64,000 nt of DNA, taken from positions 214,201 through 278,200 of the forward strand of contig JAGTXO010000049.1 in NCBI GenBank assembly GCA_019448385.1. The letters are read 5' to 3'. Below the pieces are notes generated by a model. It did not search any database, was not told the DNA's origin, and saw only the letters and a list, made by a program, of their open reading frames with translations. Both the position numbers and the translations under genes were made by a program. The DNA is from Diacronema lutheri (Eukaryota > Haptophyta > Pavlovophyceae > Pavlovales > Pavlovaceae). Shown here one piece after another: positions 24,815 through 50,500 of the stretch; position 1 is the stretch's first letter, and every line of letters starts with the position of its first letter.

Positions 24815-24972
24815 GCTCTCCTCGGCTCTCCTTGGCGCCACGATTTCGCGACGCAAAACCGAGACTGCGCCACCCCAATCCGCGACGTCGCGAAATCCCT
24901 CCCGAGACGTGTATTCAAAAATCGGCTCGTCGCGAGTTGCCAAAACGTAAACGTATGGGGGTATATTTTAAA

Positions 24973-25110
24973 GGGAGAATCGCACTTTTCGGCGCAAAAA
25001 ACGTGGCGCGCGCACTTTTCGGCGCACGATGGCGTCTGCGCCGAAAAGTGCGCGCTTTGCGCACTTTTCGGCGCATGGTGCGCACTTTTCGGCGCATGGT
25101 GCGTATTGCC
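24973..25110. repeat. Outer left inverted repeat and palindromic subterminal repeats
   Basis: Bases 24973-25026 (GGGAGAATCGCACTTTTCGG...) are the exact reverse complement of 33418-33471 over 54 bases. The motif GCGCACTTTTCGGCGCA occurs five times between 24982 and 25098 in both orientations, so pairs of copies can fold back. These are features of transposase-binding ends of DNA transposons. No clear target duplication was found outside. Confidence 0.8.
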
Positions 25111-25292: not shown

Positions 25293-26063
25293 CTAGCAAT
25301 CGTGTGTGTACGATCCAGCTCGCCCATGGCACGCTGCATCATACCGCCGCTTGCTTACGAGCGCCCCTGACATGGCCCTTAAATGCCCCGGCGCTGAGCT
25401 GGACAGGGCAAGTGCGCATGTTGTGCCCCTGCTGCATGCAGTTGTGCCGCTGCTGCTTGCAGACTGTGCACGCCTGAAGCTGTCGGCTCGACGCCCCGCC
25501 ATGACCAGCACCAAGGCCACCAGCTCGGTGTGGGTCGCTGCTGTTTGTCCTTCTGCGCGCAGGGAGCGAAGTCGCTGTCGTCGCCGGCCGAGACGTCCAA
25601 AACTTCTGGCATACTGTCGGCCGCCACCTGGCGGGAGGTCACGCCAAGAACCATCCAAGTTGTTGAGGGCAAAGCAATGCGCACAAAAGAGCTCTCCCTC
25701 CTCGTCGCCCTGCCGTACATCTGGGCACCTGAACGCTGTGTGGATGTGGCACTTGCACACGGCGCACCTGCGGAAAGACTGCCAACTGATGCACATCTTC
25801 TCCTTGTCCTCGTCGCTCAGCGTCGCAATGCGGCCAGAAAAACACGACCACTGGGCGCCAATGGACGGCTCGCTTCCATCCGATGTGGATGGCCTCTGGT
25901 TGAACCCGTCGATCAAAACAGGCGTGCTTGAGCGCGCGACGAAGCCAGCGTTTTCGTTTGCAAAGCGATGCGGCGGGATTGCAGCAGGCAACCAGAGGCC
26001 ACGTGCTGCAGGTTGCGGATCTGCACGAGGAAGTAGCGCGTCGTGTGCCGGTTGTAGTTCCAC
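25293..26063 (-). pseudogene. Fragment with Cys-rich zinc-ribbon-like motif
   Basis: Within this frame, FRRCAVCKCHIHTAFRCPD followed by ELFCAHCFALNN has Cys spacing like the C-terminal Cys-rich domain of piggyBac-type transposases or another zinc ribbon. Preceding residues (SDEDKEKMCISWQS) look genuine; the rest is read-through, and the 5' part runs into the Fanzor-copy fragment. It is most likely a remnant of a transposase or regulatory protein. The family call is a guess from cysteine spacing. Confidence 0.3.
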
Positions 26064-28060
26064 CTATCCGTGGGCGTGCACCCGTAGTCGATGCCGTGGA
26101 GGACCATGTCGGGCAGGTAGTCGTTGAGCGCGGCGGGGCAGTTGGCGCGCGCGCCCGCCACGTCGCCACGCAGCAGCCGCTCGCACAGCTCGCGCACGCG
26201 CGCGTTTTGCTGCATCTCAGCGCGAAGAGCGCCTCGTCGCGCTCGACTGCCGCGCGGACAACGTCGCGGAGCAGCCCGTTTACGACGCGCGATGGGTGCA
26301 TCAGGCACGCGGTGGACACCTGCGTCGCCTCCTCCCTGAGGATCTGCGCGAGGCCCACCGCGCAGACGGGCTGGACGCCCTCGGCTATCTCGCCGACGGC
26401 GCGCGCCGTCGCCGCCTTGGTCTGCGCGGCGGCTTGCTCGGCGGGGGGGGGGGGGTGGGGGGGGGGGGGGGGGGGGGGCTGCACCGTACGTGCTCTCGTC
26501 CTTGTGCCAGCCGATCGCCGAGAAGATTGCGCGGACGGTTCCCCTGTCCATCGTGGTCGACGTGTGCACGCTGGTCGACGGGCCGCCCGACGCCGCGCCG
26601 GCGGCCTGCGCGCTCGCCACCGCAGCCTCGTCGCGCACCACCTTGTTGATGACGCGGTACGCCTGTGTCGTGAGCCTGTGCACGGCCGCCGCGATGCGCC
26701 GCTGCTCCTTCCGCGCACCGGGCTGCGCCGTCACCGCCTGCGACCCCGCGTTGAGCGTCGAGCGCCTGACCACGAAGCCTGGGAGCACGCTGCCGCGCGT
26801 GCGCGCCGTCGCGCCGCCGGCGGCGCGCGCGCTCGGCGCAGCGGGCTCGTCCACGCGCGCGCTCTCGACGCCGCGCGCGCGGGGAACGCTCGGCGCGAGC
26901 GCGCCCGCGGCGTCGCGCGCGCGCGCGGCGGCACCCGCCGCGGCGCGCTTGCCCGCGGCGCCCGAGACGCCGTGCGCGCGAAGCGGCGCCGACGCCAATG
27001 CCGACGCCGCGCCCGCGCCGCCGCTGCCGCTGCCCGATCCGCCCGCGCGCCGCTTCTGCTCGTCGCGCGTCTTGCGGAACTGGGCGACGAGGTCGCTGCC
27101 CACGTTGGCCTCAGGCTCCCACGTGTCGGCGCTCTCGTCGTAGCCCAGCCACCTGATCCGGAACTAAAAGCTCGCCGATGACCGCCCCGACCTCGTACGT
27201 GCGCGCCTCCTCGTCGACGCTCGCGCCCGCCGCGCTCGCGCCCGTGTCCGGCCAGCCAGCGACCGTGCCGCCCAGCCTCTCGGCGACCGCGCGCAGCTGC
27301 CGCTCGCGCTGGACGGCCGCGGCGCCTCGCGCGACCAGCGCGGGCAGCATGCCCGCGCCGCCCGCGAGGCCGTGCGCGCCGACGCTGGCGGTCATCAGCG
27401 CGTCGAGGCACGCGAACGTTGCGAGCGCACGCGCGCCATCGTCGCCGCCGCGCGGCTGCGAGCGCACGACGGGCGATGGCTGCGGCTCCCCCTCGGCCGC
27501 GAGCAGCGGCCAGATAGGATTGGCCAGCGCGACGGCATGCGCGCCGACCGCGACGGCCACGTCCGCGTCGAGCGGCGCAAAGTCGTAGCGCACGAGCGCG
27601 GCGGGGCGCGAGTCGTCCGTCGGCCGGTCGGCGACGAGCAGCCCGACCGGGCGCGGCGGCTCGCCGGACGGCGCGGCGACGGGCACCCAGGGGAGCACGA
27701 CGAGCAGGCGCGGCGTGCCGCCGAGCAGCGCGCGCGCGGCATCCGCCCCGTCGGCTCTGCCGCGCGCGGCCGCGGCGAGCAGCTCGGCCGCGCGCGTCGG
27801 ACGTTGGCGGGACAACCGAGCGGCATCGGGCGATCCACTTGAGCGGCTAGGTCCAACGCCTCGAGGTGCACGTACAGCTCTTCCCACCCGAGTGTCTCCC
27901 AGATGGCGCCCGCGGTGAGGCGCACGAGGCGCGATACCTGCGCGCAGCGTGCAGCGCACCAGGCCGCGGGCGCGTGAGCGTTTTAGCCGCATGGCGGCGC
28001 GTGTGGCGGCGCACGCAACGGCGGCGGGGGCGACAGCGGCAGCAGCCGCGCCGCGCGCAC
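25998..28060 (-). pseudogene. Truncated second copy of the chromodomain-Fanzor gene
   Basis: Bases about 25998-27803 align nearly base for base with about 35838-37646 of the giant gene (GGCTGGCACAAGGACGAG, LDALMTASVGAHGLAGGAG and many others shared). Differences break it: the chromodomain core has an internal deletion/substitution near 27160-27185, and a segment near 26440 is replaced by a long G run. Beyond 27803 a separate fragment (27820-28060) resembles the Fanzor segment after the PLR motif (VRLTAGAIWETLGWEELYVH against VRFAASAIWVTLSDDERKEL). The RuvC catalytic part is absent. It is a dead, rearranged copy lying between the outer and inner left repeats of the IS630-like element. Confidence 0.85.
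26439..26481. repeat. Interrupted poly-G run in the Fanzor copy
   Basis: About 40 bases, nearly all G with a single T, replace the sequence GGCTTGCCTCGGGGC seen at the matching place (about 36281-36295) in the giant gene. It adds a run of prolines to the frame. Confidence 0.85.
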
Positions 28061-29505: not shown

Positions 29506-30525
29506 ATGGAGATCATCCTCTGGCAGTACTATTTTCTCGGTAGGAGCACGTTGACGATCGCGGATGACCTCCAGACATCCACCAACACGCTCACGGAGTC
29601 GACTGTCCGCGCGACCATCAACCGGTACGAGGCCACCGGTATCGTCGACTACCCGCCGGGCAAGCCACGCGAGAAGCTCATGAGCGCTGACGACCAGGCG
29701 CTAATGCTCGCGATCGTGCAAGAGCAGCCGTGGCTTTACTTAAGTGAGATTGCGGCCGAGCTGCAGGCCGCCACGCACAAGGCGTTTACGCGCGAGTACA
29801 TCCATTACGAGCTCCACGCCGCCGGCCTCTCGCTGAAGACGATGCAGCGCGTCCAGGCGCAACGCGACAACGACCAACGGGCAGATTACTGGCAGGCCGT
29901 GCGCTCGTACGTCCGCGATCCGGCGCAGCTTGTTTTTGGCGACGAGACGGGCATCGACGGGCGGACCGCCCGTCGCAAAATGGGCTGGGGCTTACGCGGC
30001 ACGCGGGTCAACGTGATCCAGGTACGCCACCGCGGCGTGCACATCTCCATCCTCGCGCTGTTCGCACAGGAGGGCTTTATCAGCTTTAATTGGGTGCCGG
30101 GCGGGTACAACACGCACGCGTTCGTCGATGCGATGCGCCAGATGCTTCCCCAGGTCATGACGCCATACCCGGGGCCGCGCTCGGTCCTCGTGCTGGACAA
30201 CTGCCGCATCCACCACGCGGAGCGAGCCGAGCTCGACAGCATCCTCAACAACATTGATGGCGCGGGCGGCAGAGCGCTGCTCCTGTTCCTCGCGCCGTAC
30301 TCGCCCATCGACAACCCTATCGAGTTTGGCTTCAGCGTGCTCAAAAACTACTGGAGGAAACACTCGGTTGAGCTGGACGCGCTCGACCTTAACGAGGCCA
30401 TTCAAAGGTGTCTGCTGCAATGCTATCAAGACGGGCAGTCGGCAGACGCGGCGCAGCGCAATCCCTCTGCCGCGGCGACATTTGCGCACTGCGGTTATTC
30501 TGTTCCGGGTCTAAAACAGTTGTAG
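29506..30525 (+). CDS. DDE transposase of the IS630/Tc1-mariner superfamily
   Basis: The enzyme cuts and joins transposon ends at TA targets. The 339-aa product from MEIILWQYYFLGRST has an N-terminal helix-turn-helix region (LTESTVRATINRYEATGIV). The catalytic residues follow in order: first Asp in LVFGDETGID, second Asp in SVLVLDNCRIHH, and Glu in APYSPIDNPIEFGFSVLKNY, matching the DDE_3 pattern. The frame is intact to GLKQL. It is open upstream to 29293, inside the terminal repeat, so an earlier start is possible. It is convergent with the partner gene, 18 bases apart. Confidence 0.93.
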   Translation: MEIILWQYYFLGRSTLTIADDLQTSTNTLTESTVRATINRYEATGIVDYPPGKPREKLMSADDQALMLAIVQEQPWLYLSEIAAELQAATHKAFTREYIHYELHAAGLSLKTMQRVQAQRDNDQRADYWQAVRSYVRDPAQLVFGDETGIDGRTARRKMGWGLRGTRVNVIQVRHRGVHISILALFAQEGFISFNWVPGGYNTHAFVDAMRQMLPQVMTPYPGPRSVLVLDNCRIHHAERAELDSILNNIDGAGGRALLLFLAPYSPIDNPIEFGFSVLKNYWRKHSVELDALDLNEAIQRCLLQCYQDGQSADAAQRNPSAAATFAHCGYSVPGLKQL

Positions 30526-30543
30526 CGTCGGTCGCATACGGCC

Positions 30544-33321: not shown

Positions 33322-33324
33322 TTT

Positions 33325-33471
33325 CGCTTTTTCGCGCGCGGGTCTCTCCTACTTATTCCTTCGTCCGCGAACTCAGACCCAACGGGCAGTAACCAAACGT
33401 GCGGCAAACACGTTCTGTGCGCCGAAAAGTGCGCGCGCCACGTTTTTTGCGCCGAAAAGTGCGATTCTCCC
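33325..33471. repeat. Right terminal repeats of the IS630-like element
   Basis: 33325-33391 pairs with 29227-29289. 33418-33471 pairs exactly with 24973-25026. Two GCGCCGAAAAGTGCG units lie in the outer part. Confidence 0.85.
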
Positions 33472-33474
33472 TAG

Positions 33475-33878: not shown

Positions 33879-36600
33879 TCAACGCCGGCCGCGCTTCGGC
33901 CCGCGCGCGCTGCCGCCGCCGGCACTGGCGCTGGCAGCTCCGCGGGCGGGGGTGCGGGCGCGAGAGCCGCCGCCGCCACCGCCGCCGCGCCCGCCGCCGT
34001 CGTCGCCACCGCCGTCGCCGCCGCCGCCTCCCCCGCCGTCATCGTCGTCGTCGCCGCCGCCGCCTCCGTCGCCGTCGCCGTCGCCGTCGCCCTCGCCGCC
34101 GCCGCCGTCGCCGCTGCCATCGTCGTCGTCGTCGTCGTCGCCCTCGTCGTCGCCCTCGTCGTCGCCGTCGCACTCGTCGTCGCAGTCGTCGCCCTCGCCG
34201 TGCACCATGCGCTCCTCACGCTCCCACACCTCGCCGCGCGCCCACCAGGCGAGCACGAGGGCAAAGCGCTCAGGCGTCGACGTGGTGTCGCGCCCGGCCG
34301 CGTGCGCCGCCATGTCGTGCACGTCGTAGAAGATGTTGCGCGCGGCGTTGTAGTCGCGGTGCACGGGCTTCTTGCCGCCGTTGCACGCCGGGCAGATGAC
34401 GAGCGCGTGCACCGTGCGCGTGCCGCCCTTTGCCACGGGCAGGCGCGGGTTCTGCGCGAGCTCCGCGCCGCAGCGCTGCAGCCTGCCGCCCTTGGCGAGC
34501 CGCGGCATCGAGCAGTGCATCGACGTGTACGGCTCGGGCACGAAGACGGCCGCGACGCCGCGCCGCCGCAGCTCGCGCAGCAGCCCCACCTGGAAGGCGG
34601 GCGGCGCGCCCTTGGGCTGCGCGCCCTTGTGGTCGCGCAGCCACTTGCCCACGCACACGAGCAGCCGGTCGCGCGTCACGCCGTCGACACAGTGCGCCGC
34701 GATGAGCGCCTCGGCGACGCGCGCCGCGTTGGACCGCCCGCCGCTGTCGCGCCGCCAGCGCTCCTTCCGGCGCGCCGGCGCGTCGTACACGTGCTCGGCG
34801 GCGCGCTCGCGCACCCGCGCGCTCTCGCGGTGGAAGGCGTGGAACTCGCCCTCGCCGAGCACCTTGGCGCTGTGCGCCTCGCCAAGCCGCGCCTCGTCCG
34901 CCTCCACGCTGAACTCCTCGCCGCGCCCGTCCTTGCGCACGCGCCGCCGCGCCGCGTTGGTCTTGGCCGTCTCGCGCGCAAAGCCCGCGGCGCGCGCGCG
35001 CGCGCGCTGCGTGAACTGCCGCCAGACGGCCGCCCGCCCGACGTGCGCAGAGTAGGTGGTGATGTTGCCCATGTTCGGGTCGGCCGCGACGACGACCGCC
35101 GCCTCGACGTCGATCGCCCGCCGCAGCTCGGAGCCGAGCGCGACGGCGATGCGCCCGTCCGGCCGGCGCCAGCGGTGCAGGACGCCCGAGCCGCCGGCCG
35201 GCGCCTGCGCCTTCGGCACGAGGACGGTCCCGACGGCGTGCACGGCGACGCCATCTGTCACCACCGACTTGACGGGCTGCCGGCCCGGGAGCGGCACGCG
35301 CGGCAGCGGCGCGAGGCCAACCCACGAGCGCCGCGCGTGCCACGGCAGATCGGCCGGCGGCCGCTCGCGCCCGGCGTAGTCGAAGACGCGGTTGGAGATG
35401 TCGAAGCGCGTCGCAAAGACCGCGTACCTGACGCGCACGTCCGACATCGGCGGGGTGTTGCCGTTTGTGCCTGTCCACTTGATCGGCTCGCCATCGTGGT
35501 CGCGCAGGTCCAGCGCCTTGAGCCGCGCGCGCAGCTCCTTGCGCTCGTCATCCGAAAGCGTCACCCAGATGGCGCTCGCGGCGAAGCGCACGTTGCGCGG
35601 CACCTGCGCGCAGCGCGCGGCGCGCGAGCGCGCGGGCGCGTGACCAACCTGGCCGCGGGGCGGCGCGCACGGCGGCGGCGCGCGCGCGCTTGGGCCCTCG
35701 GCGGCGGCAGCGGCAGCCACGCCTCGCGCGCACATTGTGCGTGCGCAGCGGCGCCACATTGTACCGCGGCGGCCGTCCGGTCAGCTGCGTGTGGATGTGC
35801 GCGAGCCGGCAGAGCAGCGCCTGCCCCTCGGCCACGTGCTGCAGGGTGCGGATCTGCACGAGGAAGTAGCGCGTCGTGTGCCGGTCGTAGTTCCACCTTT
35901 TCGTGGGCGTGCACTTGTAGTCGATCTTGTGGAGGACCATGTCGGGCAGGTGGCGGTCGAGCGCGGCGGGGCAGCCGACGCGCGCGCCCTCCACGTCGCC
36001 GCGCAGCAGCCGCTCGCACAGCTCGCGCACGCGCGCGTTTCGCTGCATCTCGGGCAGCGCGACGAGCGCCTCGTCGCGCTCGACTGCCGCGCGGACGACG
36101 TCGCGGAGCAGCCCGTTCACGACGCGCGATGGATGCATCAGGCACGCGGTAGACACCTGCGTCGCCTCCGCCTCGAGGATCTCCGTGAGGCCCACCGCGC
36201 AGACGGGCTGGACGCCCTCGGCCATCTCGCCGACGGCGCGCGCCGTCGCCGCCTTGGTCTGCGCGGCGGCTTGCTCGGCGGGCTTGCCTCGGGGCGCTGC
36301 ACCGTACGTGCTCTCGTCCTTGTGCCAGCCGATGGCCGAGAAGATCGCACGGACGGTTCCCTTGTCCATCGTGGTCGACGTGTGCACGCTGGTCGACGGG
36401 CCGCCCGACGCCGCGCCGACGGCCTGCGCGCTCGCCACCGCAGCCTCGTCGCGCACCACCTTGTTGATGACGCGGTACGCCTGTGTCGTGAGCCTGTGCA
36501 CGGCCGCCGCGATGCGCCGCAGCTCCTTCCGCGCACCGGGCTGCGCCGTCACCGCCTGCGGCCCCGCGTTGAGCGTCGAGCGCTTGACCACGAAGCCCGG
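33879..36600 (-). other. Fanzor (eukaryotic TnpB-like RNA-guided nuclease) domain
   Basis: Fanzors are RNA-guided DNA nucleases related to TnpB. The N-terminal part reads AAAVHRLTTQAYRVINKVV. Splicing out 35604-35733 creates YNVAPLRTHNVPRNVRFAAS, the expected PLR motif. RuvC-I is VVVAADPNMGNITTYSA (Asp 5816), RuvC-II is VFVPEPYTSMHCSMP (Glu 5998), and RuvC-III is HRDYNAARNI (Asp 6058). The zinc ribbon keeps ICPAC on one side, but the other pair reads C-S-M-P with only one Cys. The tail (about 110 aa) is almost pure Asp and Gly. All three acidic catalytic residues are present. Confidence 0.88.
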
Positions 36601-39600
36601 GAGCACGCTGCCGCGCGTGCGCGCCGTCGCGCCGCCGGCGGCGCGCGCGCTCGGCGCAGCGGGCTCGTCCACGCGCGCGCGCTCGACGCCGCGCGCGCGG
36701 GGAACGCTCGGCGCGCGCGCGCCCGCGGCGTCGCGCGCGCTCGCGGCGGCACCCGCCGCGGCGCGCTTGCCCGCGGCGCCCGACTCGCCGTGCGCGCGAA
36801 GCGGCGCCGACGCCAATGCCGACGCCGCGCCCGCGCCGCCGCTGCCGCTGCCCGATACGCCCGCGCGCCGCTTCTGCTCGTCGCGCGTCTTGCGGAACTG
36901 GGCGACGAGGTCGCTGCTCACGTTGGCCTCAGGCTCCCACGTGTCGGCGCTCTCGTCGTAGCCCCGCCACCTGATCCGGAACTGGAACGTCACCTTCTTG
37001 CCCGCCTTGCGGCGCTCGTCGACGACCGCCTCGACCTCGTACGTGCGCGCCTCCTCGTCGACGCTCGCGCCCGCCGCGCTCGCGCCCGTGTCCGGCCACC
37101 CAGCGACCGTGCCGCCCAGCCTCTCGGCGGCCGCGCGCAGCTGCCGCTCGCGCTGGGCGGCCGCGGCGCCTCGCGCGACCAGCGCGGGCAGCATGCCCGC
37201 GCCGCCCGCGAGGCCGTGCGCGCCGACGCTGGCGGTCATCAGCGCGTCGAGGCACGCGAACGTTGCGAGCGCACGCGCGCCATCGTCGCCGCCGCGCGGC
37301 TGCGAGCGCACGACGGGCGATGGCCGCGGCTCCCCCTCGGCCGCGAGCAGCGGCCAGATCGCACTGGCCAGCGCGACGGCATGCGCGCCGACCGCGACGG
37401 CCACGTCCGCGTCGAGCGGCGCAAAGTCGTAGCGCACGAGCGCGGCCGGGCGCGAGTCGTCCGTCGGCCGGTCGGCGACGAGCAGCCCGACCGGGCGCGG
37501 CGGCTCGCCGGACGGCGCGGCGACGGGCACGCAGAGGAGCACGACGAGCAGGCGCGGCGTGCCGCCGAGCAGCGCGCGCGCGGCATCCGCCCCGTCGGCT
37601 CCGCCGCGCGCGGCCGCGGCGAGCAGCTCGGCCGCGCGCGTCGGGCCCAGCGCCGTGCGCGCGTCCTTGCGCGCGCGTGCGCGGGCCGTGTACGCGGCGC
37701 AGGCGTCGTCGAGCACCGCCGCGCTGGGCGCGGTGCCAGTCGTCGCCCACGCGCGCAGCGCGTCGCGCACCCGCGTGACGATCGCCTGGTCGACCGCCGC
37801 CTCGCCGGCAGCGTGCGCCGGCGCGCACGCCGGCGGTGCGGCGGCAGGCGCGAGCGCGGGCGCGCCGTCGGCGCCGTCAACGCCGACGGCGCCGTCGGCG
37901 CGCCGCCACGCGAGCTTCGCCTCGATCTGCTGCCGGACGGCGTGGCAGTGCCGGTCGATGCCGCGCGCGTCGTCGAGCGCGGCCAGCGCGTCCTCAGCGG
38001 CGGGACGGCCGCTCGCGTCCGCGACGGCCTGCAGGCAGAGCAGCGCGGCCGCACGCGCGTTGCACGCGCTCTGCGGCTCGGGCGCGAGCGCGAGCTCGAG
38101 CTCGAGCGGCGACGCGCCTCGCGCCGCGGCGATCGCGTCCATCAGCACGTCCAACCGCTGCACCAGCGCCCTGTGCGCGTCGCGCGGCGCGCCCGTCGAC
38201 GGCGCGCGCGAGCGCGTCGCCACGAGCCCGAGCGCGCGCGCCGGCGCGCCCGCCGGCGTGTGCAGCACGAGCAGCGCCGCGCCCGCCAAGCTCGCGTTGC
38301 GCGTGACGAGCGCGAAGATGCGCGTCGCCTCGTGCGCGCCCACCGACGCCCAGATCGCAGCGCGATCGGCGTCCGTCTGCGCGTCGCACAGGTCGCGCAC
38401 GTCGTCCGGCGCGAGCAGCGCGCCGCCGCCGGCGGAGCGCGCGACGATCGCCCGCGCCTCCGCCACGAAGACGGCCTGCGGCAGGTCGGCGTGGCGCGCG
38501 TCGACGATGGCGCGCGTCGCGTGCACGCCGAGCTCCACGCCGCGGTAGAAGGCGCGCGCGTTGGCCGCGCGCGCGTGCGCCGGCCGTCCGTCCGCGTTGC
38601 GCCTCGCGCGCGCCTGCTTGCTCGTGCGCGCGAGGCCGTCGCGTGGCGGTGGCGGCAGCGTGGCGAGGAAGCGCGCGGCGGGCGGCGGCGCGCGCACGCC
38701 GCGCTGCCGCCGTGCGATGGCCGCGAGCCGCCGGCCCGCCGCGCTGCCGCCCGCGCCGACGTGCTGCCGGCGGCCGAGCGCCGCCGGTGGCGGCGGCGGC
38801 GGCGGCGCGGCGGCGGGCGGCGGCGCGACGGCGGGCGGCGGCGCGGCGGCGGGCGGCGGCGCGGCGGTGGGCGGCGGCGCGGCGGCGGGCGGCGGCGCGG
38901 CGGCGGGCGGCAGCGGCGGCGGCGCGGCGGCGACGGCAGCACCAGTCGGCTTGTCCGCCCACGCACCCGAGACTCTGTCCCAGACCTTGCCCCATGGCGC
39001 GCGCCCACGCGGCCGCGCGAACTGCCCCGGCTCGAGCGCCTGGCCGCGCTTGGCGGCGGCGGCGGCGGCAGGGGGCGGGCGGCCGGCGCGCCAGTCGAAG
39101 ACAGGTGCAACCGTGGCGGCAGGCGCCGAGTGCCGCGCGTCGGTCACAGAGCGCGTGGTGCGCGCGGCGACCGTGGCACGCCTGGCGGGCGGGCGGTGAG
39201 CAGCGCCCGCCGGCGCGCCGGCGGGCGCGGCCGCCTCGAGCCCGGCGGAGGCGCCGCGCTTGCGCTTGCGCGTGCCGCCGCGCGTGCGCCTGCGCGCGCG
39301 CCCGCCGCGCGCCCGTTCGGCCTGCGCGTCGCCAGCCGCGTCGCCGGCCGCGTCGCCGCGCCGCACGTAGACGACCGCGAACGCCTCCTCGCCGGTCCCG
39401 TCGACGCCGCCGCGCGCGCGGCGCAGGACCGACCGCCACTGCAGCCGCCGCGCGCGGCCGGGCTCGCACGCAAACCAGCGCCCACCGCGCCTGACGACGG
39501 CCACAAAGTCGTCGTCGCGCCGCCCGCGCCGGCGCGTGCGCAGCAGCACGCACTGCACGTCGAGCCAGCCCTCGTGCCAGTCGGCCGTGCTGGGGGCGAC

Positions 39601-42600
39601 GCGAATCGACTGCGGGAGCTCGACGCCAAAGCCGGCGAGCCGCACGATGTGCGCGACGATGACGCTCGAAATGGCGGGGGCGCTCGACGGGTCGCCCGCT
39701 GCAGCGAGCACCGCCCCGCCCCAGTGCTCACGCGTGACGCAATCCGCGTCCTCGACGTGCACGTGCGCCACGCTCGCGCCGAGCTGGTGCAGCAACGCGC
39801 AGATGTCGGCGTCGACCGTCCTCTCCTCCTCGGCCGCCTCGGCCGTGCCGCGGGCGGCGGCGTCGCCTGCCGGCTGCCCGAGGTACGCGATCGCCCGCTC
39901 GACGGCCGCGCGCTCCGCACGCGCTGCGCTGTCGATCGCCGCATTGCCGACGGGCGCGCGCAGCGCCGCGATCGCGTCTTGCAACGCCGTCGCGTCGCCC
40001 GTCGCCGCCGTCGCCGCCACCGCCGCCGCGCTCGCGGTGCCGTGCGCGACGGCGTGCAGCGCGGCGGCGCGCGCGGCGGGGATGCGCCCGTCCAGCGCGA
40101 GCACGAGCGGCGGCCCGGCCGGCGTCTGCTGCCGCCGGTGCCGCCGGCTCGCAGCCGGGTGGTCGGCGCGCGCGCGCTCGAGCCGCGCGCGCCGCTCGAC
40201 GACGCGCGCCCAGAAGGCCTGCACCCTCGGCTGCGCGAATGCAAGCCAGCCGACGCCGCGCGTCACGACGTGCACGACGATCCGGTCCTCGTGCCTGAGG
40301 TACTGCACGTAGAGCGCTTTGCGCACGCCGAGGACGTGCATGCCGAGCTGCAGCTGATCGCGGTGCGGCTGCGGCGGCCCGTCCTCGTGCGCCTTGGCGT
40401 CCGCCTTGGTGAGCGTCTTCACCTCGACGAGGACCTGCTCGTTGTCTTCGGGGAGGATGGCGAGCCCGTCCGGCGAGAAGGCGAACGGCGCGCTCTTGTC
40501 GTGCGGGTCCGCACGCACCATCGGCAGGTTGCACACGACGGTGATGCCGTACGCGGCCGCCAGCTTGCGCAGCGCGACGGCCTCGCCGAGGATGCCCGCG
40601 GTCGTCGCCTTGGTCCGCACCTCGCGCCGCCGCCGGTGCACGTACTCGTCGGTGAGCGTCTCGTGCGCGACGCCGGCGTTGTCGTTCACGACGTCGCCAA
40701 CCTTGCTGCCCGTGACCTCCTCCCATCGCTCGTCGTGCCAGCGCGGGCTGCGCTGCGCGGGCGCGCCCGCGCCGACGGCGTCGAGCACGCGGCGCAGCGC
40801 TGTGCCGTCGGGCGCAGCAGGCACGCGCGCGCGGTCCTGGGCCTCGCGAGCGTCGAGGACGCAGCCCGTAGTGGAATCTTGGGGTAGGTCGAGCTTGCTC
40901 GCCTCGCCGTAGCGGCTCTCCAGCTGGCGCGGTGCGTCGGCAGGGCCGCCGTCCGTGCGCGCACCCGACGCGCCCGCCAGTGCACGCGGCGCAGCGTCCG
41001 AGGCGCCCGCCGCGCCCGCGCCGCCGCCAATCGCGCCAGCGCACGCGCGCGCCGCGACCTGCGGACGGCCAGCCGCAGGGACCTCGTCCGCTCGGCCGGC
41101 CGCTGCGTCGGCCGTCCGCTTGGCCACCTCGCGCACGTCTCCGAGCGCGAGCGTGGCTGGCGCCGTCGAGCTCCCGTGGCGTTTGTTCCAAAACTCGAGC
41201 AGCCCGCCAAGGAAGGGCGTGCCCGTCGGGCGGTCCTCGGGCACCTCCGCCAGGATCGCGTCGACGCGCAGCGCGGCCGCCACATCGCAAAACGCGCGCG
41301 CGGCGCGCGCCATCCGCTCGGCGCGCGCGCCGCCGTCGTCCGCCGCGCGGCGGATGGCGTGGCTCACGTGCGCGACGCGGAGCGAGACGACGGCGTGCGC
41401 CGGCGCGTCGGCGCCCGTGCCGAGCGTGTGCCGCCGGATGGCCAGCTGCCCATCGCCCATGCGCGGCGGCAGCGACGCGCACGCCGCGACGGTCGTCGTG
41501 CCGGCCGCGCTGTCGCACAGCCAGCTCGCCTCGCCGCCGCCCGCAAACTCAAAGGTCGCGAAGCCCTCGCGGCCGAAAAGCGCGACGAAGTGGTCGAGCA
41601 CCGCCTTGTTGATCGCGCGCGCCGCCGGCCGCGTCGATGCGCCGCGGGCAGCGCCACCCGCCGCGCCGCGCGCATCGCTGCACGTCGCAGGGCAGGTGCA
41701 GCCGGACGCGCGCACGCCGTCCGACCGCGTCCGCGGCAGCTCGAGCTCGCGCACCTTGGGGCAGAACCAGAGCGGGTTGGACGCCTCGAGGCACAGCACG
41801 ACGAGCCGCCCGTCCGTGCCGGCCAGCGCGCGCGCGTCGCGCAGCAGCTCGACGGCGAGCTCGGACGTCGCCGCGTGCACCGCCGGCTCGCCCGTCGCGC
41901 GGTCGGGCGGGAAGAGGCCACCGCCGACGAGCGGGCTGGGGCAGCGGCCGAGCATCACGAGCAGCGGCGGCGGCGGCGTCTGCGGCGCCTGCTGCCCGAC
42001 CGCAGCCGCCGTCAGCCCGGCCAGGTCGGAGCTCGTGCGGAGGGCCTTGAGCGCGACGCGCGAGCCGGTGCCCGCCTGCTCGGAAAACGTGGCGAGCATG
42101 GCGCACGTGCTCGCCCTCGCGCCGCACTGCCAGCTGACGCGCGCGAGGAGGCCTTCCAGCGTGTCGTTTTCGCGCGGCCGCGTGACCGCGTCGAGCGCCG
42201 CCGGGCCGAGCTGGAGGCTGCCGGGCGTGACGCACAGCACCGCCTCGTGGTAGGCGCGCAGCAGCTCCCTCGGCAGCTGCTCGGCGGGCGTCGCCGCCTG
42301 CCCGCCCACCCACCGTGCACCGTGGCCGCCGTCGCCCGCGCCCGCGAGCCGCACCGCCGGCCCGCCCGTGATCGCCGAGGTCGGCGGCGTGCCGAGCGCG
42401 TCGACGAGCGCGCGCACGGGCGCGACACGCCTGCGCGCAGCGTCCGCGCCGACGGCGAGCGCGGCGATCTGAGCGCCCTCCCATGCGCGCTCCCTCGCGT
42501 CGTCCCGCGCGGCCGCCGGCGCGGCGCCCGGCCGCGCGCCGGGCGGCACCGCGCACGCCGCCGCGACGACCTCCGCGCGCGCGCCGGCGGCGTCGGGCGC

Positions 42601-44454
42601 GTGCAGCTGCGCGAGCGCGCCAAAGAGCGCGGCGGCCGAGCGGTAGCGGCCGTGCGCCGCGACGAGCGCGTAGAGCACGCGCAGCGCGGCCACGCCCGCC
42701 TGGTCGGGCGCGTCGCCAGCGATTTGCTCGACCTCCCACGTGCGCGTGGGCGGCGGGCTGCCGTCAGCCGGGTCCGGACGCAGCGCCCACGCGCGCTCGA
42801 CGATCGCGTTGAACACGCCGTGCGCGGCGCCCTCGTCAAACTCGGCGGCGCCCGCCGCGTGCGCGCACCACCCGTGCACGCGCGACGTGGGCGCGTCCAC
42901 GGCGCGCTGCACGACGAGCACCGCCGGCCGGTCGACGCAGCCGAGGCTCACCGCCGCGTGCTTGCCCTCGAGCAGCGCCGCCGCCGCAGCCTCGACCAAG
43001 GCGTCATCAGGCGCGTCGCCGACGACGACGGCACAGCCGTCGCCGTACTCGGCCTGCATCGCGGCGACGCACGACGCGACAAAGTCGCCGCCCGCGGCCG
43101 CCGCGTGTCGCGCCGCCAGCATCCGGCGCGCGATGGCAAGCCAGACGTACTCGGCCGGCGCGCGCGCGGCGCGCGCGCGAGGCGCGCCGGCCGCGCCGCG
43201 TGCGCCCGCGCGTGCGCCTCCAGCGGCCGCAACGGCCGAGGCGGCTGGAGCGGCGGTGAGCGTGCGCCGCGCGCGCTTCGCCGGCCGCGCGATGGGCGAT
43301 GCACCCGCCGTCGCACCGCCCGCAGCAGCCGGTGCGGCCGCCACAGCGCCCGCCGCGACGCCACTCGTCACGACGCCCGTGGCGGGCGGCGCGGCGGCGG
43401 ACGTGGCCGCCTCGACGGGCGTCGCGCAACTACCGCCAGCGGTCGCGGACGCGCCCGGCGACGCGTCGGCGAGGAGGTGGCGCAGCACGCCGCGCGCGAG
43501 CGCGACTCGCACGGCGAGCGTCAGCGCGCGCAGGCGGTCGGAAGGCGAGGCGTCGCGCTCGGCGTCGGCGGACGTGGCGGCAGCAGGCGGGGCGGCGGGC
43601 GGCGCGGCGGCGGACCGGGCGGCCGCCGGCGCAACCTCGTCGGCCTTGGCCAGCCAGACGAGCCCGGCGACTGCGAGCACGACGCTGTACGCGCCGACAT
43701 CGTCACCCGCAACGCGCGCCAGCCGGGCGTGGGCGTCGGCCTCGGACACGGCGACGCGGAAGAGCACGTCGTCGCGGGCAGCTTGCTCGGCAAACTGACG
43801 CAGCTGCTTGGCCATCGTCACGCCGGCGACGGACGCCTCGCCCGCCTCTGCCTCGACCTGCTCGTCCTGGCCGATGGCGGACGCGCCGGCCTCGGCGCCA
43901 CCGTCGAGTGTCCGGCGGCGCTCGAGGGCAAAGCCACGCACACAGACGCTCTGGAGGCCGCCGAGCGCGCCCGCCTTTTCGTGCAGCGCGCACGACAGCT
44001 CGACCACCGAGTCCACGCGCCTCGCGGCGGCGCCCCCCCGCTCGCCGCGCGTGGCCGCGCGCACGACGAACACCGTGAATTGCGCGCGCTTCGCCGCGCG
44101 CGCCGACGCGCACGCGTGCTTCAGGAGCCGGCAAAGCGCGGGCCTTTGCGCCGCTGCGCCCCGCGTGCACAGCAGCAGTTGGCCGCGCTCGTCGCCCAGC
44201 TCCTGCTCGACGGCGGCCTCGAGCGCGTCGTCCGTCAAATCGCCGTGCTCCGTCGAGGCGAGCGCGCGCGCAGCCGCGAGCGCCAGCTCGCCTGCGCCCG
44301 CGCGCCGCCGGCGGCGCGCACCGGCGGGCGCGTGCGGCGCCGACGCGTGTGACGACGCCGCCGCGTCCGCGCGCGCACACGCGGCGCGCAACGCCTCACG
44401 CGCCGAGGCGGCCGCGCGCGCCCTGGGCGCGAGCTTCAAGAACGTGCGCGCGGC

Positions 44455-44533
<79 letters not shown>

Positions 44534-47500
44534 TCGCCCGCGTCGCCGGCCGGCGGCGGCGGTGGCGGCGGTGGCGGCGCGGCCACGGCGGCGGCAGCAG
44601 CGGCGGCGGCGGCGGTGGCGGCGGCGGCGGCGCCCAGCGCGGGCGGCGGCGGCGTGGCGGCGGCGGTGGCGGCGGCGGTGACGCCAGCGGCGGCCTTGGC
44701 GCCGCGCGTCTGCGGCGGCGTTTCGGCGCCATCGGGGCTGCCCCCGCCGCGCACCGCGCTCGTGACCGCGCAGACGCCGCCCGGCGCACGATCGCCGGCC
44801 GCGCCGGTCAGCGCGACGCGGAGGCGCTCGCCGACAGCGTACATGTCCGCCACGCTGAACGTGCGCGGCGCGGACGAGCAGCCCGCCGCGGCGAGCGCGT
44901 CGTTGAGCGCGCCCACTATCGCGAGGCCGCACGTCGCGCCACGCTGCGCCGCCTCGTTGAGCAGCAGCGCGCGGCGCACGCGCGAAATGTCGAGACCCGC
45001 CGCGTGCAGCGTGGCAGTTATCGCCTTGGCGAGCATGAGCGCCTGCCTGCAGGGCGACGCGAGCGTGTCGACGAGCACCGCGTCGTAGCGATGCTCGCCC
45101 GCGCGCGCGACGCGCACAAGGCGCAACGCGGTGAAATGGCCGGAGGCGAGCTGCGCGCCGTCGTCACCGCCCGCGCCGCCGCGCTCGTCCGACGGGCTCC
45201 ACACGCCGATGACAGCCTGCGTTGTCGCCTCGCTGCGCAGGCGGTGCAGCAGCGCGGCGCGCTCGGCGTCGTCCTGAAACACCGCGGGTTGCGCGGCGAG
45301 CGGCACGTGGCAGACATGCCCGCCGCCGGCCTGCCCGTGCACGCGCAGCACGACCTCGCAGCACGCGTCGACGGTTGAGGCGAGCATGTCGCCGCTGGCG
45401 ATGCGCTCCACCTCTGCCTGCGGGAGGCCGGCGCTCGCGGCGGCGGCGGCCAGCCGGCGCGCAGCCGCGTCGCCCGCCCACGCAAGCAGCGCCGAGTTGG
45501 CGGGTTGGAGGGGAAGCTCAAGGGCGGCTGGTTCGGTGGCGGTAGCCTCGTTGGCAACGGGCACGTTGGCGGTGCGCGCGTTGGCGGCGGGCGCGGCGGC
45601 GATGGCTGGTGGGGCGGAAGACGCGCCCGCGGCGGCGGGCGCGGACGCGGCAGCGGCAGCGGCTAGTGGGGCGGGGAAAACGCCGTCGGTGGCAGGCGCG
45701 GAGGCGAATGCAGGAGCAACTAGTGGGGCGGGAAAATCGGCGGCAGGCGCGAAGGCGGATGCAGCAGCGGCTAGTGCGGCGGGGAAAACACCGTCGGCGG
45801 CAGGCGCGAAGGCGGATGCAGGAGCGCCCAGCGGGGCGCAGAAAACACCGTCGGCGGCAGGCGCGAAGGCGACAGCAGCAGCGGCCAGTGGAGCGGAGGC
45901 GCAGGGCCACGCGCGCGCCAGCCGTGCAAGCCCAAGCCGCGCGCGAGCGACGCACGCGCCGATGGCCGAGGCGGCGGCGCAGGCCACGATGTGGCCTGGC
46001 ACCGGTGTGGCCAGCCGCTCGCGGGTGTGCACGTCGAGCCGCGCCCCACGCCAAGAGCGGCGGCGCGCTGAACGGAGGCGCGCGACCCCGATCGATCCGC
46101 CCGCGCACGCGCGCGCCGGCTCAGTGTGGCCAACGCGCGCCGCTATGCAAGGCGCGCGCGCGATAACGGCGGCTGTCGGCCGTGGCGTGCGCGTGGCGGC
46201 GCCGCGGCGACGGGCGCGGCACACGAGCCGCTCGGGCGCGCCGCCGCCGCGCGGCACGATGTCGAGCAGCACGGTCACGCCGCGCGCGCGCGCGACCGCC
46301 GTGCACGCGAGCCGCACGGGCAGCGGCGGCCCGTCCGGGCGCGCGAGCGCCGCCACCTCGGCGTCGGTGAGGCTGTGCAGCTCGCGGCGCGCGCGCGCGA
46401 ACGCGGCGATGTCCGCGCGCAGCTCCGCGTCCGTGCCGAGCGCGGCACGCGCGTGCACGGGGAGCGACGCGCGCAGCGCGTGGAGCACGCCGCCGCGCGC
46501 GCCGCGCGGCGCCGGCGCGCGCTCGCGCTCAGCGCGCGCGGCGCGCGTGAGCTCGCGCACCGCGCGCGCGAGATTGCGCCGCGCGGCCGCGACGGGAGGG
46601 CTAGGTGCGCGCGCGCGCCGGTTGTAGCGCGGCCGCGCCGAGTCGAGGGGCGGCGGACGCGGTGCGTACGCCGCGGCGCGGCCCGCGCGCCAAAAGGCCG
46701 GCGGCGGGCGCAGCTCCGTCGCGTCGACCGCGGCCGCGAGCGCGCCGAGCGCGGCGTCGCTGTCGCCCGCCGCGTCGGCCGCGTCGACGAGCACGAAGAG
46801 CGCGCCGAGCGCGCGCGACGCGGCCGCCTGCGCGGCGGTGGGGCGGGCGCAGGCAGCGACGCATGCGGCCGCCATGCCGCGCGCCGCGGCGAACGCCGGT
46901 GACGTGACGGCCGCGCCGATGGCAACGGCGGCGGCGGCGACGGTGGAGGCGGCAGCGCCGGCGATGGAGTTGGCAGCGGCGGCGGCGCTTGCCATCGCGC
47001 GGCGCGCGAGACGCGAGGCGCCACCGACCGCCGCCGCCGCAGCGCGCGCTGCGCGCGCGCCGGTGGCGCGCATCGTCGCCGCGCCAGGCGCCGCCGCGCC
47101 GACGCCGCCGGCGCCCGCGCCGTCGCCGCTCTCGGCCGTGCAGGGCTCCGATGGCGAACCCGGCGTGCGCTGGCGCGTGATGCGCGCGCCGAGGCGCGCG
47201 CTCCGCGCCGCGCGGCCGGCGACGTCGAGGAAGCGCCGTGCGCGCGCCGCGCGCAGGCCACGCGCGCGCGGCGGCGCACCGACAGGCGCCGAGCGCCGCG
47301 GCGCGCACGCCGGCGCGTCGCTGTCGGGTTGCGCAGCGCGCGCGCGGGAACTCGGCGCGGCGTGTGCGGGCGGCGGGCGCGCGCCCGCGCGGCGCAGAGG
47401 CGCGAGGCGCCGGCCGCAGACGAGGCGTGTGCGCAACCAGGACGGCGAGGGCCGCAGGGCGCCGTCGACGTCGCGCATCGGCGGGCCGCGAGCCCGCCGC

Positions 47501-50500
47501 GCAGCCGTGCGGCGCGCGCGAGGCGCTCGGCGGCGCGCGCGCCGCACGGCGCGCGCGGCGGCGCGCACGCCAGCGACGGCTGCGGCCACGCCGCGCGCCA
47601 ACACGGCCGCGGCGTGCGCCATCGCACCGAGCACGGCGCGTGGCGCGCCGAGCAAGCGCAGCAAGCGCGACGCCGTCGCGCGCGCCGGCGCACCGTGTGC
47701 AGGGGCCTCGCCAGCGCCAGCACCGACGCCGCCATCGCCGCAGCCGCAGGTGGCGTCGCCGCCGCCGCAGGCGTCGCGACGGACGCCGCCGCCGCCGAAA
47801 CAACCGCCGCACACGTCGCCGCCGACGTTGCCACCCCAGCCGCCGTTGCGTGCGCAGGTGGCTGCGGCGCGTGCGTGCGGGAGGCGTGCCGTGCGGCGCG
47901 CATCACACGGGCTGCGCGACGCGAGCGACGCCGCCGGGGGCCCCGCTGCGCCAGGCGCGCCGTGCGCGCCAGCCTCGCCGGCCTCGCCGGCGCGCGGTCG
48001 CGCGCTCGCCTCGACGTGGCCGCCTCCGCCGCCATCGCCGCCGTCGAACCGGGCGGCGGAGGGCTGCCGCTCGAACCGCTCGTCGGCGTCGGCCGCCACC
48101 GCCGCCTCGCGCTCCGCCGCCGCGGCGGCCGCACGGCGCGCGTGGCGGAGCGCGCGGCCGCCGTCCGCTGCGCGGCGTGGCGGCGCGGGCGCGGGCTTCG
48201 GCGCGCGCGGCCCCTCGGCGCGCTCGCGGAGCACGGCGAGCGGCGTGCCCGTGGCGACGCTCGTGCAGACGCGCCGCAAGGCGGCGCTTACGCACGCGTG
48301 GACGACGCGCGCCGTCCGCTTGTCGGCGGCGCGCGCGGCGCGGCGCGCGGCCTTGGCGGCGGCCTTTTTGGCGCGCCTCTGCTCCGCCTGCTCCGACAGC
48401 GCGCGCGCCTGGCGCTCGGCTGCGAGCGCGTCCTCGGGCGAAACGGTCGGCCTCGGCGGCCGCGCGCGCGCGCTGCGACGCTGCGCGCTGCGGCGGTCGG
48501 ACGGCGGCTGCCGCGGCGGCGAGGACGGCGAGCGCGAGCTCGGCGTGGGCGACCAATCGCCGCTGACGGTTGCGAGCGGCGCAAACGGGTTGTCGTCCCC
48601 GCGACCCGCGGCGTGCGACAGTGCACGCGGCGTCGGGCGCCGGCCGACCGCTGGCGGGCCCCACTCGGACGGCGGCTCCGAGGGCGAGCGCGCCGTCGGC
48701 GCCGCGCGTTGCGCGGCCGGCGGCGCCTCCCGGTCCAGCGCCGCCTGCTCTCTCGCCGCGGCCTGCTCGTCACCCTCCGGCACGCCACGCGGCGCGAGCA
48801 CCGCGGTGGCGCAGCGCGTCGCGTTGAGCAACGCCGCCTCCATCTGCCGCACGCTGGCCTTGGCGCACGCCACACCCTGTCTCGCCCGGCGCAGCGCCTC
48901 GTGCGCGCGGCGCACTTCCGCGTCGGCATCTTCGCGCATGCCAAAGTGCGCCTGTTGCAGCCGCAGGTCCGCAGGGCGCCCCTGCGCGCGAGGGGCACGG
49001 GCGCGGCGGCGCGCAGGTGACGGAGCTGGCGCGCCGTTCTGCGCTGCGCGCACGCCAATCGACGGGCGCGCGCGCGGCGGGGCGCGCGCGCGCGCGCGCG
49101 CGCGCGCTGCCTACCCAGCCGCCGGCCGGCTCGCGCGAGCGCGCCAGCTGCTCCGCCGCCTCGGCGTCGAGCACGCGCTGCTGCGCCTCCTCCTCGCCCA
49201 GTGCAGCGAGGTGCAGCCGGCGGGCTGCCTTGCGGCAGTTGCCCTCCGCCTTGCCCACGGCCTTGCGCGCCGCGTCGACGGGGTCGTCGTTGGCTCTGGC
49301 GCGCCTGCGCTTGCCCTTGTCGGCGGGCGGCGGCTCGGCGCGCTGCAGCGTGCCGAGCGCGTCGTCGGCTCCGCGCGCGGCCGCCCGCGGGCGGCGGGCC
49401 CCAAAAAGCGCACCGGTCGCCGTGCGCGCCGCGCAAGCAACGACCAGCGCTGACATGCCGGCGAAGACCGCACCGCCCAGCGCCACGGTTGCCACGATGC
49501 GCAGCGTCCCGTGCGCAGGCCGCGCTGCCTCCGCCGCTTTGGCGGCCTCGCGCGCGCGCGCATCGGCGGCTCTCATCTCGTGCAGCAGCCCGGCCGCGCC
49601 GCTCGCGCCGTCGCGGCCGCGCGCGAGCTCGCACAGCACCGCCGCCGCGCGCCGCGTGGGCTCGCGCGCGAGCAGCTGCGCGCCGCCGTCGGGGCGCAGC
49701 TTCTCAACGAACTCGACAAACGTCGCGTCGCGCCAGAGGGACATGCGGAAGGCCCTGTGCACCGCCCCCTCGTGCTCGCGCATCCGCCGTGCCGCCCGCC
49801 TGCCGTCGCGCGCGTGCGCGTGCGCGGCCGCGTCGACTCCCGCGACGCCGCGCTGCGCGTCGCGCGCGGCCGACGACGGCGCCGCCGCGCTGCCCGCCAA
49901 GGGCGCCGCAGCGGCGACGCGCGCGTGCGGAGCGACGGGATCGCCGGCGGCCGGCGGCTCGGCGCGCTGCGGCGTGCCGTTTGCTCCGCGCGCGGCCGTC
50001 CCGGGGGAGATGGCCGCGATGGCGCCGCCAGCCGCGCCGCGCGCCAGCCACGCGCATAGGCTGCCGACGAGCTCGCCGAGACCCCCGACGGTCGCCGCGG
50101 CGGCGAGTGCGCCGGGCTTGCCGGCCGACAGCGGCTCGCGAGCGTCGTCGTCGCAGCCGCCGGCACCCGTCTTGGCGAGTGCGTCGCGCTCGCCCTCGAC
50201 GCCCGCCACGACCGCCGCCCCTCCGTCGTCCGCCGCGCCGGCCGCGCGCGCGGCCGGGCGCAGAGGAGGCGTGCCGGTGCAGCCGTCGCCGCTCGTCTTC
50301 GCCGTTTCCTCCACTTTGGTCACTCCGTCGCCACCTGCGCCATCTCCGACGCCGGGGCCCTTGGTCACGCTTGCCGCCATGCGCGCCGTGCCCGCCGGCC
50401 AGCCCGCCGACTGCTCGAGCGCGGCGGCGAGCGGCGCGACGCGCGTCGACTCGGGCGCGCTCTCGTCATCGGGCTCGAGCGCGTTGTGCAGGCGCGCGAG

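What the first reader, a model, noticed from the sequence alone, without database searches (positions are those of the whole stretch)
33879..37057. Chromodomain fused to a Fanzor RNA-guided nuclease
A clear chromodomain (FQFRIRWRGYDESADTWEPE) sits about 100 residues before a Fanzor domain whose RuvC Asp, Glu and Asp are all present, in one uninterrupted frame plus one phase-compatible intron. Chromodomains read histone methylation, so this would tie an RNA-guided nuclease to a chromatin state. Chromodomains are known on some retrotransposon integrases; I know of no described Fanzor with one.
Basis: partly seen in the sequence, partly recalled or inferred. Interest (0 to 1): 0.92.

Follow-up and report, generated by a model that had tools for sequence, protein, structure and literature searches.

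The report
Fanzor nuclease fused to chromodomain
A gene in this GC-rich, apparently eukaryotic DNA joins a histone-mark-reading chromodomain to a Fanzor-type RNA-guided DNA-cutting enzyme, which would let a programmable nuclease be steered by chromatin state, although binding and cutting remain to be shown.

Summary
A classical chromodomain (PF00385, E 6.7e-13) lies 94 residues upstream, in the same open frame, of a two-exon Fanzor-type nuclease. Exon 2 carries the TNB zinc ribbon (PF07282, E 2e-6, just above cut-off), the published TnpB/Fanzor long motif, the relocated glutamate that marks Fanzors, and a D-x-N/E/D site like SpuFz1. Three methyl-lysine cage aromatics align to HP1. No in-frame ATG separates chromodomain and Fanzor start, and third-codon GC is continuous there. 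A decayed second copy 9.8 kb away (93.5% identical) repeats the order, arguing against an assembly chimera.

Best reading: a mobile-element-derived polyprotein whose chromodomain tethers an RNA-guided nuclease to methylated chromatin. Binding, cleavage, guide RNA, splicing and transcript are unshown; nuclease homology outside the TNB rests on motifs. My literature searches found no such fusion. New variant of a known kind.

The parts
36889..37041 (-). Chromodomain (classical; Y/W/Y cage aligned to HP1 Y24/W45/Y48)
   Evidence: PF00385 E 6.7e-13; 2dnt E 8.5e-11 and 1kna E 7.4e-9; cage residues named in PMC3350952 (passages)
36607..36888 (-). Ala/Gly/Arg-rich linker, 94 residues, same frame, no ATG
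   Evidence: its 3' limit is set by eye
35734..36606 (-). Fanzor N-terminal half (WED/REC equivalent, inferred), end of exon 1
   Evidence: open frame with GC3 0.87-1.0; no profile hit of its own in Pfam, NCBIfam or PHROGs, so the domain name is inferred
35604..35733 (-). Predicted GT-AG intron, 130 nt, phase 0
   Evidence: 3-base periodicity lost; remnant C matches from the first intron base through the acceptor
33879..35603 (-). Exon 2: RuvC and TNB zinc ribbon, then Asp/Gly-rich tail and stop
   Evidence: PF07282 E 2e-6; long Fanzor motif
35073..35081 (-). RuvC-I D-P-N (catalytic Asp; Asn two residues on, as SpuFz1 D383/N385)
   Evidence: SpuFz1 residues from PMC10432273 (passage)
34533..34535 (-). 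RuvC-II Glu in the Fanzor 'Ealt' position, six residues between it and the first zinc-finger Cys
34383..34514 (-). C4 zinc ribbon (Cys codons 34512-34514, 34470-34472, 34392-34394, 34383-34385)
34353..34355 (-). RuvC-III Asp in HRDYNAARN
35548..49110 (-). Giant open frame (4,520 aa stop to stop) whose 3' end carries the chromodomain and the Fanzor N-half
40189..40764 (-). RecE/YqaJ lambda-exonuclease-family domain in the same ORF, about 1,050 aa upstream of the chromodomain
   Evidence: phrog_434 E 6.5e-17; TIGR03033 E 6.6e-7, below its cut-off; PF09588 E 0.0017, below its cut-off
25997..27800 (-). Copy B: decayed duplicate of 35830-37644 (chromodomain, linker, Fanzor N-half), 93.5% identical
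27848..28060 (-). Remnant C: about 72% identical to 35505-35733 (intron and start of exon 2)
24972..25027 (+). 56-bp inverted repeat, left arm (perfect match to 33417-33472); copy B, remnant C and the IS630/Tc1 element lie between the arms
33417..33472 (-). 56-bp inverted repeat, right arm; about 400 nt beyond the Fanzor stop codon of copy A

Best explanation
Copy A (33879-37057, minus strand) is a genuine chromodomain-Fanzor fusion forming the C-terminal end of a very large, probably mobile-element-derived polyprotein that also carries a RecE/lambda-type exonuclease domain. Shown by sequence: domain identities, one continuous coding frame plus a predicted intron, intact active-site and cage residues, and a second, decayed copy with the same order. 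Inferred: an omega RNA guides the nuclease to the element's own target or empty sites. Inferred: the chromodomain, reading methylated histone H3 tails, concentrates the enzyme on silenced chromatin where element copies lie. Inferred: the double-strand break is repaired from another element copy, so the element is kept or spread, possibly with end resection by the exonuclease in the same chain.
For: Chromodomain E 6.7e-13 and TNB E 2e-6. Y/W/Y cage aligned to HP1 (cage residues per PMC3350952). TnpB/Fanzor long motif met; loose form in 1 of 20,000 shuffles; form with DP[GN] and the relocated Glu in 0 of 20,000. Relocated glutamate as in Fanzors (PMC10711439 section 23), against 0 of 14 bacterial TnpBs with Glu at that position (read by eye; several of the 14 are near-identical). 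D-x-N/E/D spacing 182/60 against 158/65 in SpuFz1 (residue numbers). Continuous GC3 and no in-frame ATG between 37194 and 36369. Copy B with the same domain order. RecE-like exonuclease in the same ORF, phrog_434 E 6.5e-17. Precedents: the MAGGY chromodomain binds H3K9me2/3 and directs integration to heterochromatin (passages of PMC3350952); the FRI domain of PpFz1 binds cyclophilins (passages of PMC11423790).
Against: PF07282 is only 2 bits over its cut-off. NCBIfam TnpB is weak (E 0.023, 14 bits against 100), PHROG transposase weak (E 0.13). With a profile of 14 fetched TnpBs the core scored 5.5 bits and one of 200 shuffles scored higher, 7.8. No Fanzor chain was hit in the PDB by sequence at E up to 10. 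The AlphaFold model of exon 2 without its tail is useless (pLDDT 36.5). No guide RNA: Rfam 0 hits; the 406 nt beyond the stop fold at z -0.8. No terminal repeats or target-site duplication delimit copy A in the window. Purifying selection on copy A cannot be shown: A/B differences are 22/28/20 over codon positions. No confirmed relative in IMG/VR, by a method that reaches close relatives only.
Confidence: 0.5

Rival explanations
1. The giant ORF is a polyprotein cut by proteases: the chromodomain stays with the upstream part (exonuclease and unassigned domains) and the Fanzor works alone, so the nuclease is not tethered to chromatin.
For: The frame is huge (4,520 aa stop to stop). The 94-residue linker is low-complexity Ala/Gly/Arg. 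Copy B's upstream break lies inside the upstream protein, about 600 nt before the chromodomain.
Against: No protease was identified in it: the whole frame gave no peptidase family in Pfam at E up to 1, and five sub-regions of it plus two of the upstream ORF gave none at E up to 10, the only hit being a sub-threshold ProSAAS match, E 0.053. My by-eye Ulp1-like impression is therefore unsupported. A separate ubiquitin-hydrolase piece does lie upstream at 56164-57660.
Confidence: 0.2
2. Copy A is a recently inactivated or untranscribed element copy; the fusion is real in DNA but has no present function.
For: Copy B is clearly dead (26-nt deletion in the chromodomain, further indels, no third-position excess of substitutions) and remnant C is older. 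No terminal repeats were recognised for copy A.
Against: The giant frame of copy A is stop-free over 13.5 kb with strong GC3, exon 2 follows after one plausible intron, and catalytic and cage residues are intact.
Confidence: 0.2
3. The gene has been domesticated: a host protein that uses the chromodomain to bring RNA-guided binding or cutting to heterochromatin, for genome defence or regulation rather than transposition.
For: Classical HP1-like cage; apart from the TnpB-type zinc ribbon no transposase family was hit in the giant ORF; no terminal repeats around copy A in the window.
Against: Decayed extra copies among transposons fit mobility better; no orthologue could be tested.
Confidence: 0.1
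4. The downstream domain is not a Fanzor but another RuvC/zinc-ribbon protein, or the join is a gene-model or assembly artefact.
For: Only the TNB passes a curated threshold, narrowly; other TnpB profiles are weak; the intron junction is one of 38 possible.
Against: Long TnpB/Fanzor motif and relocated-Glu fingerprint; copy B repeats the chromodomain-Fanzor N-half arrangement.
Confidence: 0.05

Closest known systems
Fanzor1 (SpuFz1, GtFz1, PpFz1)
   Same: TNB zinc ribbon, D...[TS][TS]..C4..RD motif, relocated glutamate, D-x-N/E/D active site like SpuFz1; transposons nearby
   Different: N-terminal chromodomain and a giant upstream protein with a lambda-type exonuclease domain; D-P-N instead of the usual D-P-G; Asp/Gly-rich C-terminal tail; no guide RNA or target motif known. 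Fanzor1 rather than Fanzor2 is inferred from the SpuFz1-like residues, not from a tree
PpFz1 with the FRI domain
   Same: A Fanzor with an extra domain that contacts another protein (cyclophilin) (passages)
   Different: FRI is an insertion in RuvC; here the extra domain is an N-terminal chromodomain expected to bind histone tails
Chromodomain-bearing Ty3/gypsy integrases (chromoviruses, MAGGY)
   Same: A mobile-element protein carrying a chromodomain; the cage residues here are of the classical type, as in HP1, to which the MAGGY domain is likened (passages)
   Different: There the chromodomain sits at the C-terminus of an integrase; here it precedes an RNA-guided nuclease
RecE/YqaJ lambda-exonuclease family
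   Same: Profile match over nearly the whole domain (TIGR03033 positions 3-151 of 153)
   Different: Usually a separate phage or viral protein (recalled); here embedded in a giant eukaryote-like ORF together with a Fanzor

Membership tests
Fanzor (eukaryotic TnpB family) | D-X(125,275)-[TS][TS]-X-X-[C4 zinc finger]-X(5,50)-RD motif (PMC3627910, abstract) | tested here: met
   the Cys spacings allowed for the C4 part are my own rendering
Fanzor (eukaryotic TnpB family) | TNB / OrfB_Zn_ribbon PF07282 above the curated cut-off | tested here: met
   28.3 against 26.3 bits
Fanzor (eukaryotic TnpB family) | Alternative RuvC-II Glu six residues upstream of the zinc finger (PMC10711439 section 23) | tested here: met
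   EPYTSMHC; 0 of 14 bacterial TnpBs have Glu there (by eye)
Fanzor (eukaryotic TnpB family) | DPG in RuvC-I ('near exclusively' in Fanzors) | tested here: inconclusive
   DPN here; SpuFz1, an active Fanzor, coordinates metal with D383 and N385, so Asn at the third position has a precedent
Fanzor (eukaryotic TnpB family) | Overall RuvC/WED/REC fold | tested here: inconclusive
   single-sequence AlphaFold model of exon 2 without its tail, pLDDT 36.5
Fanzor (eukaryotic TnpB family) | Omega RNA next to the 3' end and RNA-guided DNA cleavage | tested here: inconclusive
   Rfam 0 hits, fold z -0.8; cleavage not testable here
Classical chromodomain | PF00385 above the cut-off | tested here: met
Classical chromodomain | Three cage aromatics (HP1 Y24, W45, Y48) | tested here: met
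   alignment to 1kna; residues named in PMC3350952; their place in the 1kna alignment is read by eye
Classical chromodomain | Predicted chromodomain fold matched to solved structures | tested here: inconclusive
   model pLDDT 67; top Foldseek hit is a chromodomain but E 1.5, and 0 hits at E 0.001
Classical chromodomain | Binding to methyl-lysine peptide | not testable with these tools
   needs a binding assay
Lambda-exonuclease (RecE/YqaJ) family | Profile match over the domain | tested here: met
   phrog_434 6.5e-17; TIGR03033 6.6e-7 and PF09588 0.0017 are below their curated cut-offs
TIR DNA transposon carrying Fanzor | Terminal inverted repeats and target-site duplication around the intact copy | tested here: not met
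   the 56-bp inverted pair encloses copy B, not copy A; no third copy at 60% or more in the window beyond weak self-overlaps, and no duplication seen

The most novel reading that the evidence does not exclude
A self-contained chromatin-aware homing machine: one polypeptide that reads histone methylation (chromodomain), cuts DNA under RNA guidance (Fanzor) and resects the ends (lambda-type exonuclease) so that the element is copied into silenced chromatin by homologous repair.
Probability: 0.25. Interest if true: 0.92.

Novelty: new variant of a known kind. Interest (0 to 1): 0.77.

Why it matters
If the fusion is functional, nature has joined an RNA-guided nuclease to a reader of histone methylation. 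That gives a direct handle on an open question: what Fanzors do for the elements and hosts that carry them, and how they cope with chromatin. It would also be a natural model for chromatin-selective editors, and the exonuclease in the same chain would connect cutting to repair-based copying.

Tried and rejected
Own genome: not held, so copy number beyond the window, orthologues and taxon could not be checked. Relatives of exon 2, of the chromodomain-Fanzor N-half and of the exonuclease in IMG/VR: patterns matched 1, 8 and 4 stretches, none confirmed. DNA patterns for a recalled Fanzor motif (WNRD-x-NA) in IMG/VR: 32 + 20 = 52 loci; the script printed the peptide for 47 of the 52, and none of the printed contexts looked like a Fanzor to me. 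The one phage hit (H1, E 0.07) proved to be an unrelated HNH endonuclease, and its record has no TnpB match (0 of 1). Profile of bacterial TnpBs: 30 loci held (L055-L084), 14 kept by my motif filter and 16 dropped; core 5.5 bits, best of 200 shuffles 7.8, so no signal; none of these 14 has the Fanzor-type Glu, so this neither supports nor excludes a Fanzor. AlphaFold without an alignment: exon 2 pLDDT 36.5; chromodomain 67 with no significant Foldseek match. Guide RNA: Rfam nothing, z -0.8, 23 sliding windows from -2.9 to +3.4, the lowest inside the nuclease coding region. Ulp1-like protease domains that I thought I saw: no Pfam support at E up to 10 in seven sub-regions. The exonuclease domain has no meaningful PDB match by sequence. 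A TIR transposon around copy A: not found. Literature: Fanzor with chromodomain (3 papers; passages of PMC6338049 seen, no such fusion in them; only listings of the other two), Fanzor with 'chromo domain' (0), and (listings). In the passages of PMC3627910 the one word beginning with 'chromo' that I see is 'chromosomal' in a reference; PMC10711439 and PMC11423790 hold none. Another Fanzor survey, recalled by its DOI, is not held and was not seen, so earlier mention there is not excluded.

Full report
Observation. The minus strand of 33879-37057 was examined directly. Pfam finds a chromodomain at 36889-37041 (E 6.7e-13, 48.8 bits against a cut-off of 25.1) and the TNB zinc ribbon of the TnpB/Cas12f family in the downstream ORF (E 2e-6, 28.3 against 26.3 bits). 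The linker between chromodomain and Fanzor start (set by eye at 36606) is 94 residues. The chromodomain lies in a 4,520-aa stop-to-stop frame, 35548-49110; the nuclease continues in another frame. A 130-nt GT-AG intron at 35604-35733 joins ...APLRTHN to VPRNVRF.... It is one of 38 frame-compatible, stop-free GT/AG pairs of 60-299 nt in 35850-35300. I prefer it because 3-base periodicity vanishes inside it (0.86/0.88/0.86 against GC3 of about 0.94-0.95 on both sides) and because a diverged remnant at 27848-28060 matches copy A from the first intron base and keeps the GCGCGCAG acceptor.

Is it one protein? In this very GC-rich DNA (0.64-0.83 per 2 kb) long ORFs arise easily; one plus-strand frame is also stop-free over 35734-37056. 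So I used other evidence. In the giant frame GC3 is 0.81-0.98 in the 300-nt windows that start from 49110 to 35910, except 0.78 at 46110 and 0.68 at 45810, and the periodic frame switches at the intron. In all 19 of the 90-nt windows from 37410 to 35790 GC3 is 0.87-1.0, without a gap at the chromodomain-linker-Fanzor junction. In-frame ATGs occur at 37194 and next at 36369, which lies inside the Fanzor N-half; an independent ATG start for the full Fanzor after the chromodomain is therefore absent. The linker itself is low-complexity and a further phase-compatible intron inside it is not excluded; that would not undo the fusion.

A second copy. 25997-27800 is a 93.5% identical duplicate of 35830-37644 and carries the same order: upstream protein, chromodomain, linker, Fanzor N-half. 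It has a 26-nt deletion in the chromodomain and further indels, and substitutions fall 22/28/20 over codon positions 1/2/3 of about 595 sites each, as expected of neutral decay. It gives independent evidence that the arrangement is no assembly chimera; it also means that constraint on copy A cannot be read from this pair. Copy B stops before the intron, so the join to exon 2 is not confirmed by it. A third remnant (about 72%) matches the intron and exon 2 start. Around copy B lie a 56-bp perfect inverted pair (24972-25027 / 33417-33472) with GCACTTTTCGGCGCA subterminal repeats (8 in the window against 0.35 expected) and, between its arms, an IS630/Tc1 element at 29227-33391 with TA next to both ends (NF033545 E 1.8e-34). 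I saw no target-site duplication for the outer pair, and no terminal repeats for copy A.

Is the nuclease a Fanzor? PMC3627910 (abstract and passages) defines D-X(125,275)-[TS][TS]-XX-C4-X(5,50)-RD. Copy A meets it; with my rendering of the C4 part, 1 of 20,000 shuffles and 1 of 176 window ORFs of at least 200 aa (this one) match. PMC10711439 (section 23) gives two Fanzor fingerprints: DPG, and a relocated glutamate six residues before the zinc finger. The glutamate is met (EPYTSMHC); 0 of 14 bacterial TnpBs that I extracted have Glu there, read by eye (16 of the 30 held loci had been dropped by my filter; several of the 14 are near-identical). RuvC-I reads DPN, not DPG; SpuFz1 coordinates metal with D383, N385, E541 and D606 (PMC10432273, passage), and ours are D175, N177, E357 and D417 of exon 2. 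A combined pattern with DP[GN] and the glutamate matches 0 of 20,000 shuffles. A conserved Fanzor1 glycine 36 residues before a conserved Glu (G500/E536) may correspond to G319, 38 residues before E357, counted by eye. Against this: no other TnpB profile is strong (in one search one of 200 shuffles outscored the core), no solved Fanzor is hit by sequence, and the fold could not be modelled.

The chromodomain. Its best sequence relatives with structures are CDYL, CDY1, CBX5, HP1 and CDYL2, with MPP8 close behind. The three aromatic cage residues Y24, W45 and Y48, named as essential in PMC3350952 (passages), align with Y, W and Y here. In that paper plant group II retrotransposon chromodomains lack Y24 and usually Y48, whereas MAGGY's group I domain binds H3K9me2/3 and directs integration to heterochromatin. 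The present domain is thus of the classical, potentially methyl-lysine-binding type. The single-sequence model (pLDDT 67) gave no significant structural match.

Wider context. The same giant ORF holds a RecE/YqaJ lambda-exonuclease-family domain at 40189-40764 (phrog_434 E 6.5e-17; TIGR03033 E 6.6e-7 but below its cut-off; PF09588 E 0.0017, below its cut-off). Besides these and the chromodomain, Pfam scans of the whole frame gave no family at E up to 1, and overlapping pieces only a sub-threshold ProSAAS match. Upstream on the same strand lie PIF1 helicase and ubiquitin-hydrolase pieces. Whether these belong to one element is unknown.

Mechanism. Shown: the sequence facts above. Inferred from Fanzor and TnpB biology (recalled): an adjacent RNA guides cutting at element-related sites and repair from another copy keeps or spreads the element. 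Inferred from chromovirus chromodomains: the chromodomain holds the enzyme on methylated, silenced chromatin. Most speculative: the exonuclease domain resects the break to favour homologous repair. No guide RNA was detected.

Novelty. My searches for Fanzor with chromodomain or 'chromo domain' and related searches brought up no described fusion; most subscription papers are not in the library, and one Fanzor survey that I looked up was not held. I rate it a new variant of a known kind: a Fanzor-type nuclease with a chromatin-reading domain. Identity as a chromodomain-Fanzor fusion I hold at about 0.85; the tethering mechanism at about 0.5.

Noticed in passing
40189-40764 (-): RecE/YqaJ lambda-exonuclease-family domain in the same ORF as the chromodomain-Fanzor; by eye its G-x-E, S-P-D-G and E-V-K motifs (recalled) look intact.
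   Followed up: partly
29227-33391: IS630/Tc1-type element with inverted ends (93%) and TA flanks, transposase ORF 29266-30525 (NF033545 E 1.8e-34), plus a second 934-aa open frame 30544-33348 (-) without a Pfam hit.
   Followed up: partly
24972-25027 and 33417-33472: 56-bp perfect inverted pair with clustered GCACTTTTCGGCGCA subterminal repeats, perhaps the ends of a further transposon containing copy B; no target-site duplication seen.
   Followed up: partly
56164-61400 (-): PIF1 helicase pieces (E 2.6e-24, and 2.4e-14 in a second frame) and a ubiquitin hydrolase UCH domain (E 4.3e-8), upstream on the same strand as the giant ORF.
   Followed up: no
48770-52807 (-): 1,345-aa open frame just upstream of the giant ORF, with no Pfam hit at E up to 1; perhaps its 5' exon, which would raise the protein to roughly 6,000 aa or more.
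   Followed up: no
33882-34190 (-): Asp/Gly-rich triplet-repeat tail at the Fanzor C-terminus, followed by a basic end (PKRGRR); coding status less certain there because 3-base periodicity is weak.
   Followed up: no
10615-11165: Tandem array of a 37-nt unit (12.9 copies over 10615-11076, continuing to 11165), unrelated to the finding.
   Followed up: no
45630-45896: 57-nt tandem repeat (4.8 copies) inside the giant ORF, length a multiple of three.
   Followed up: no
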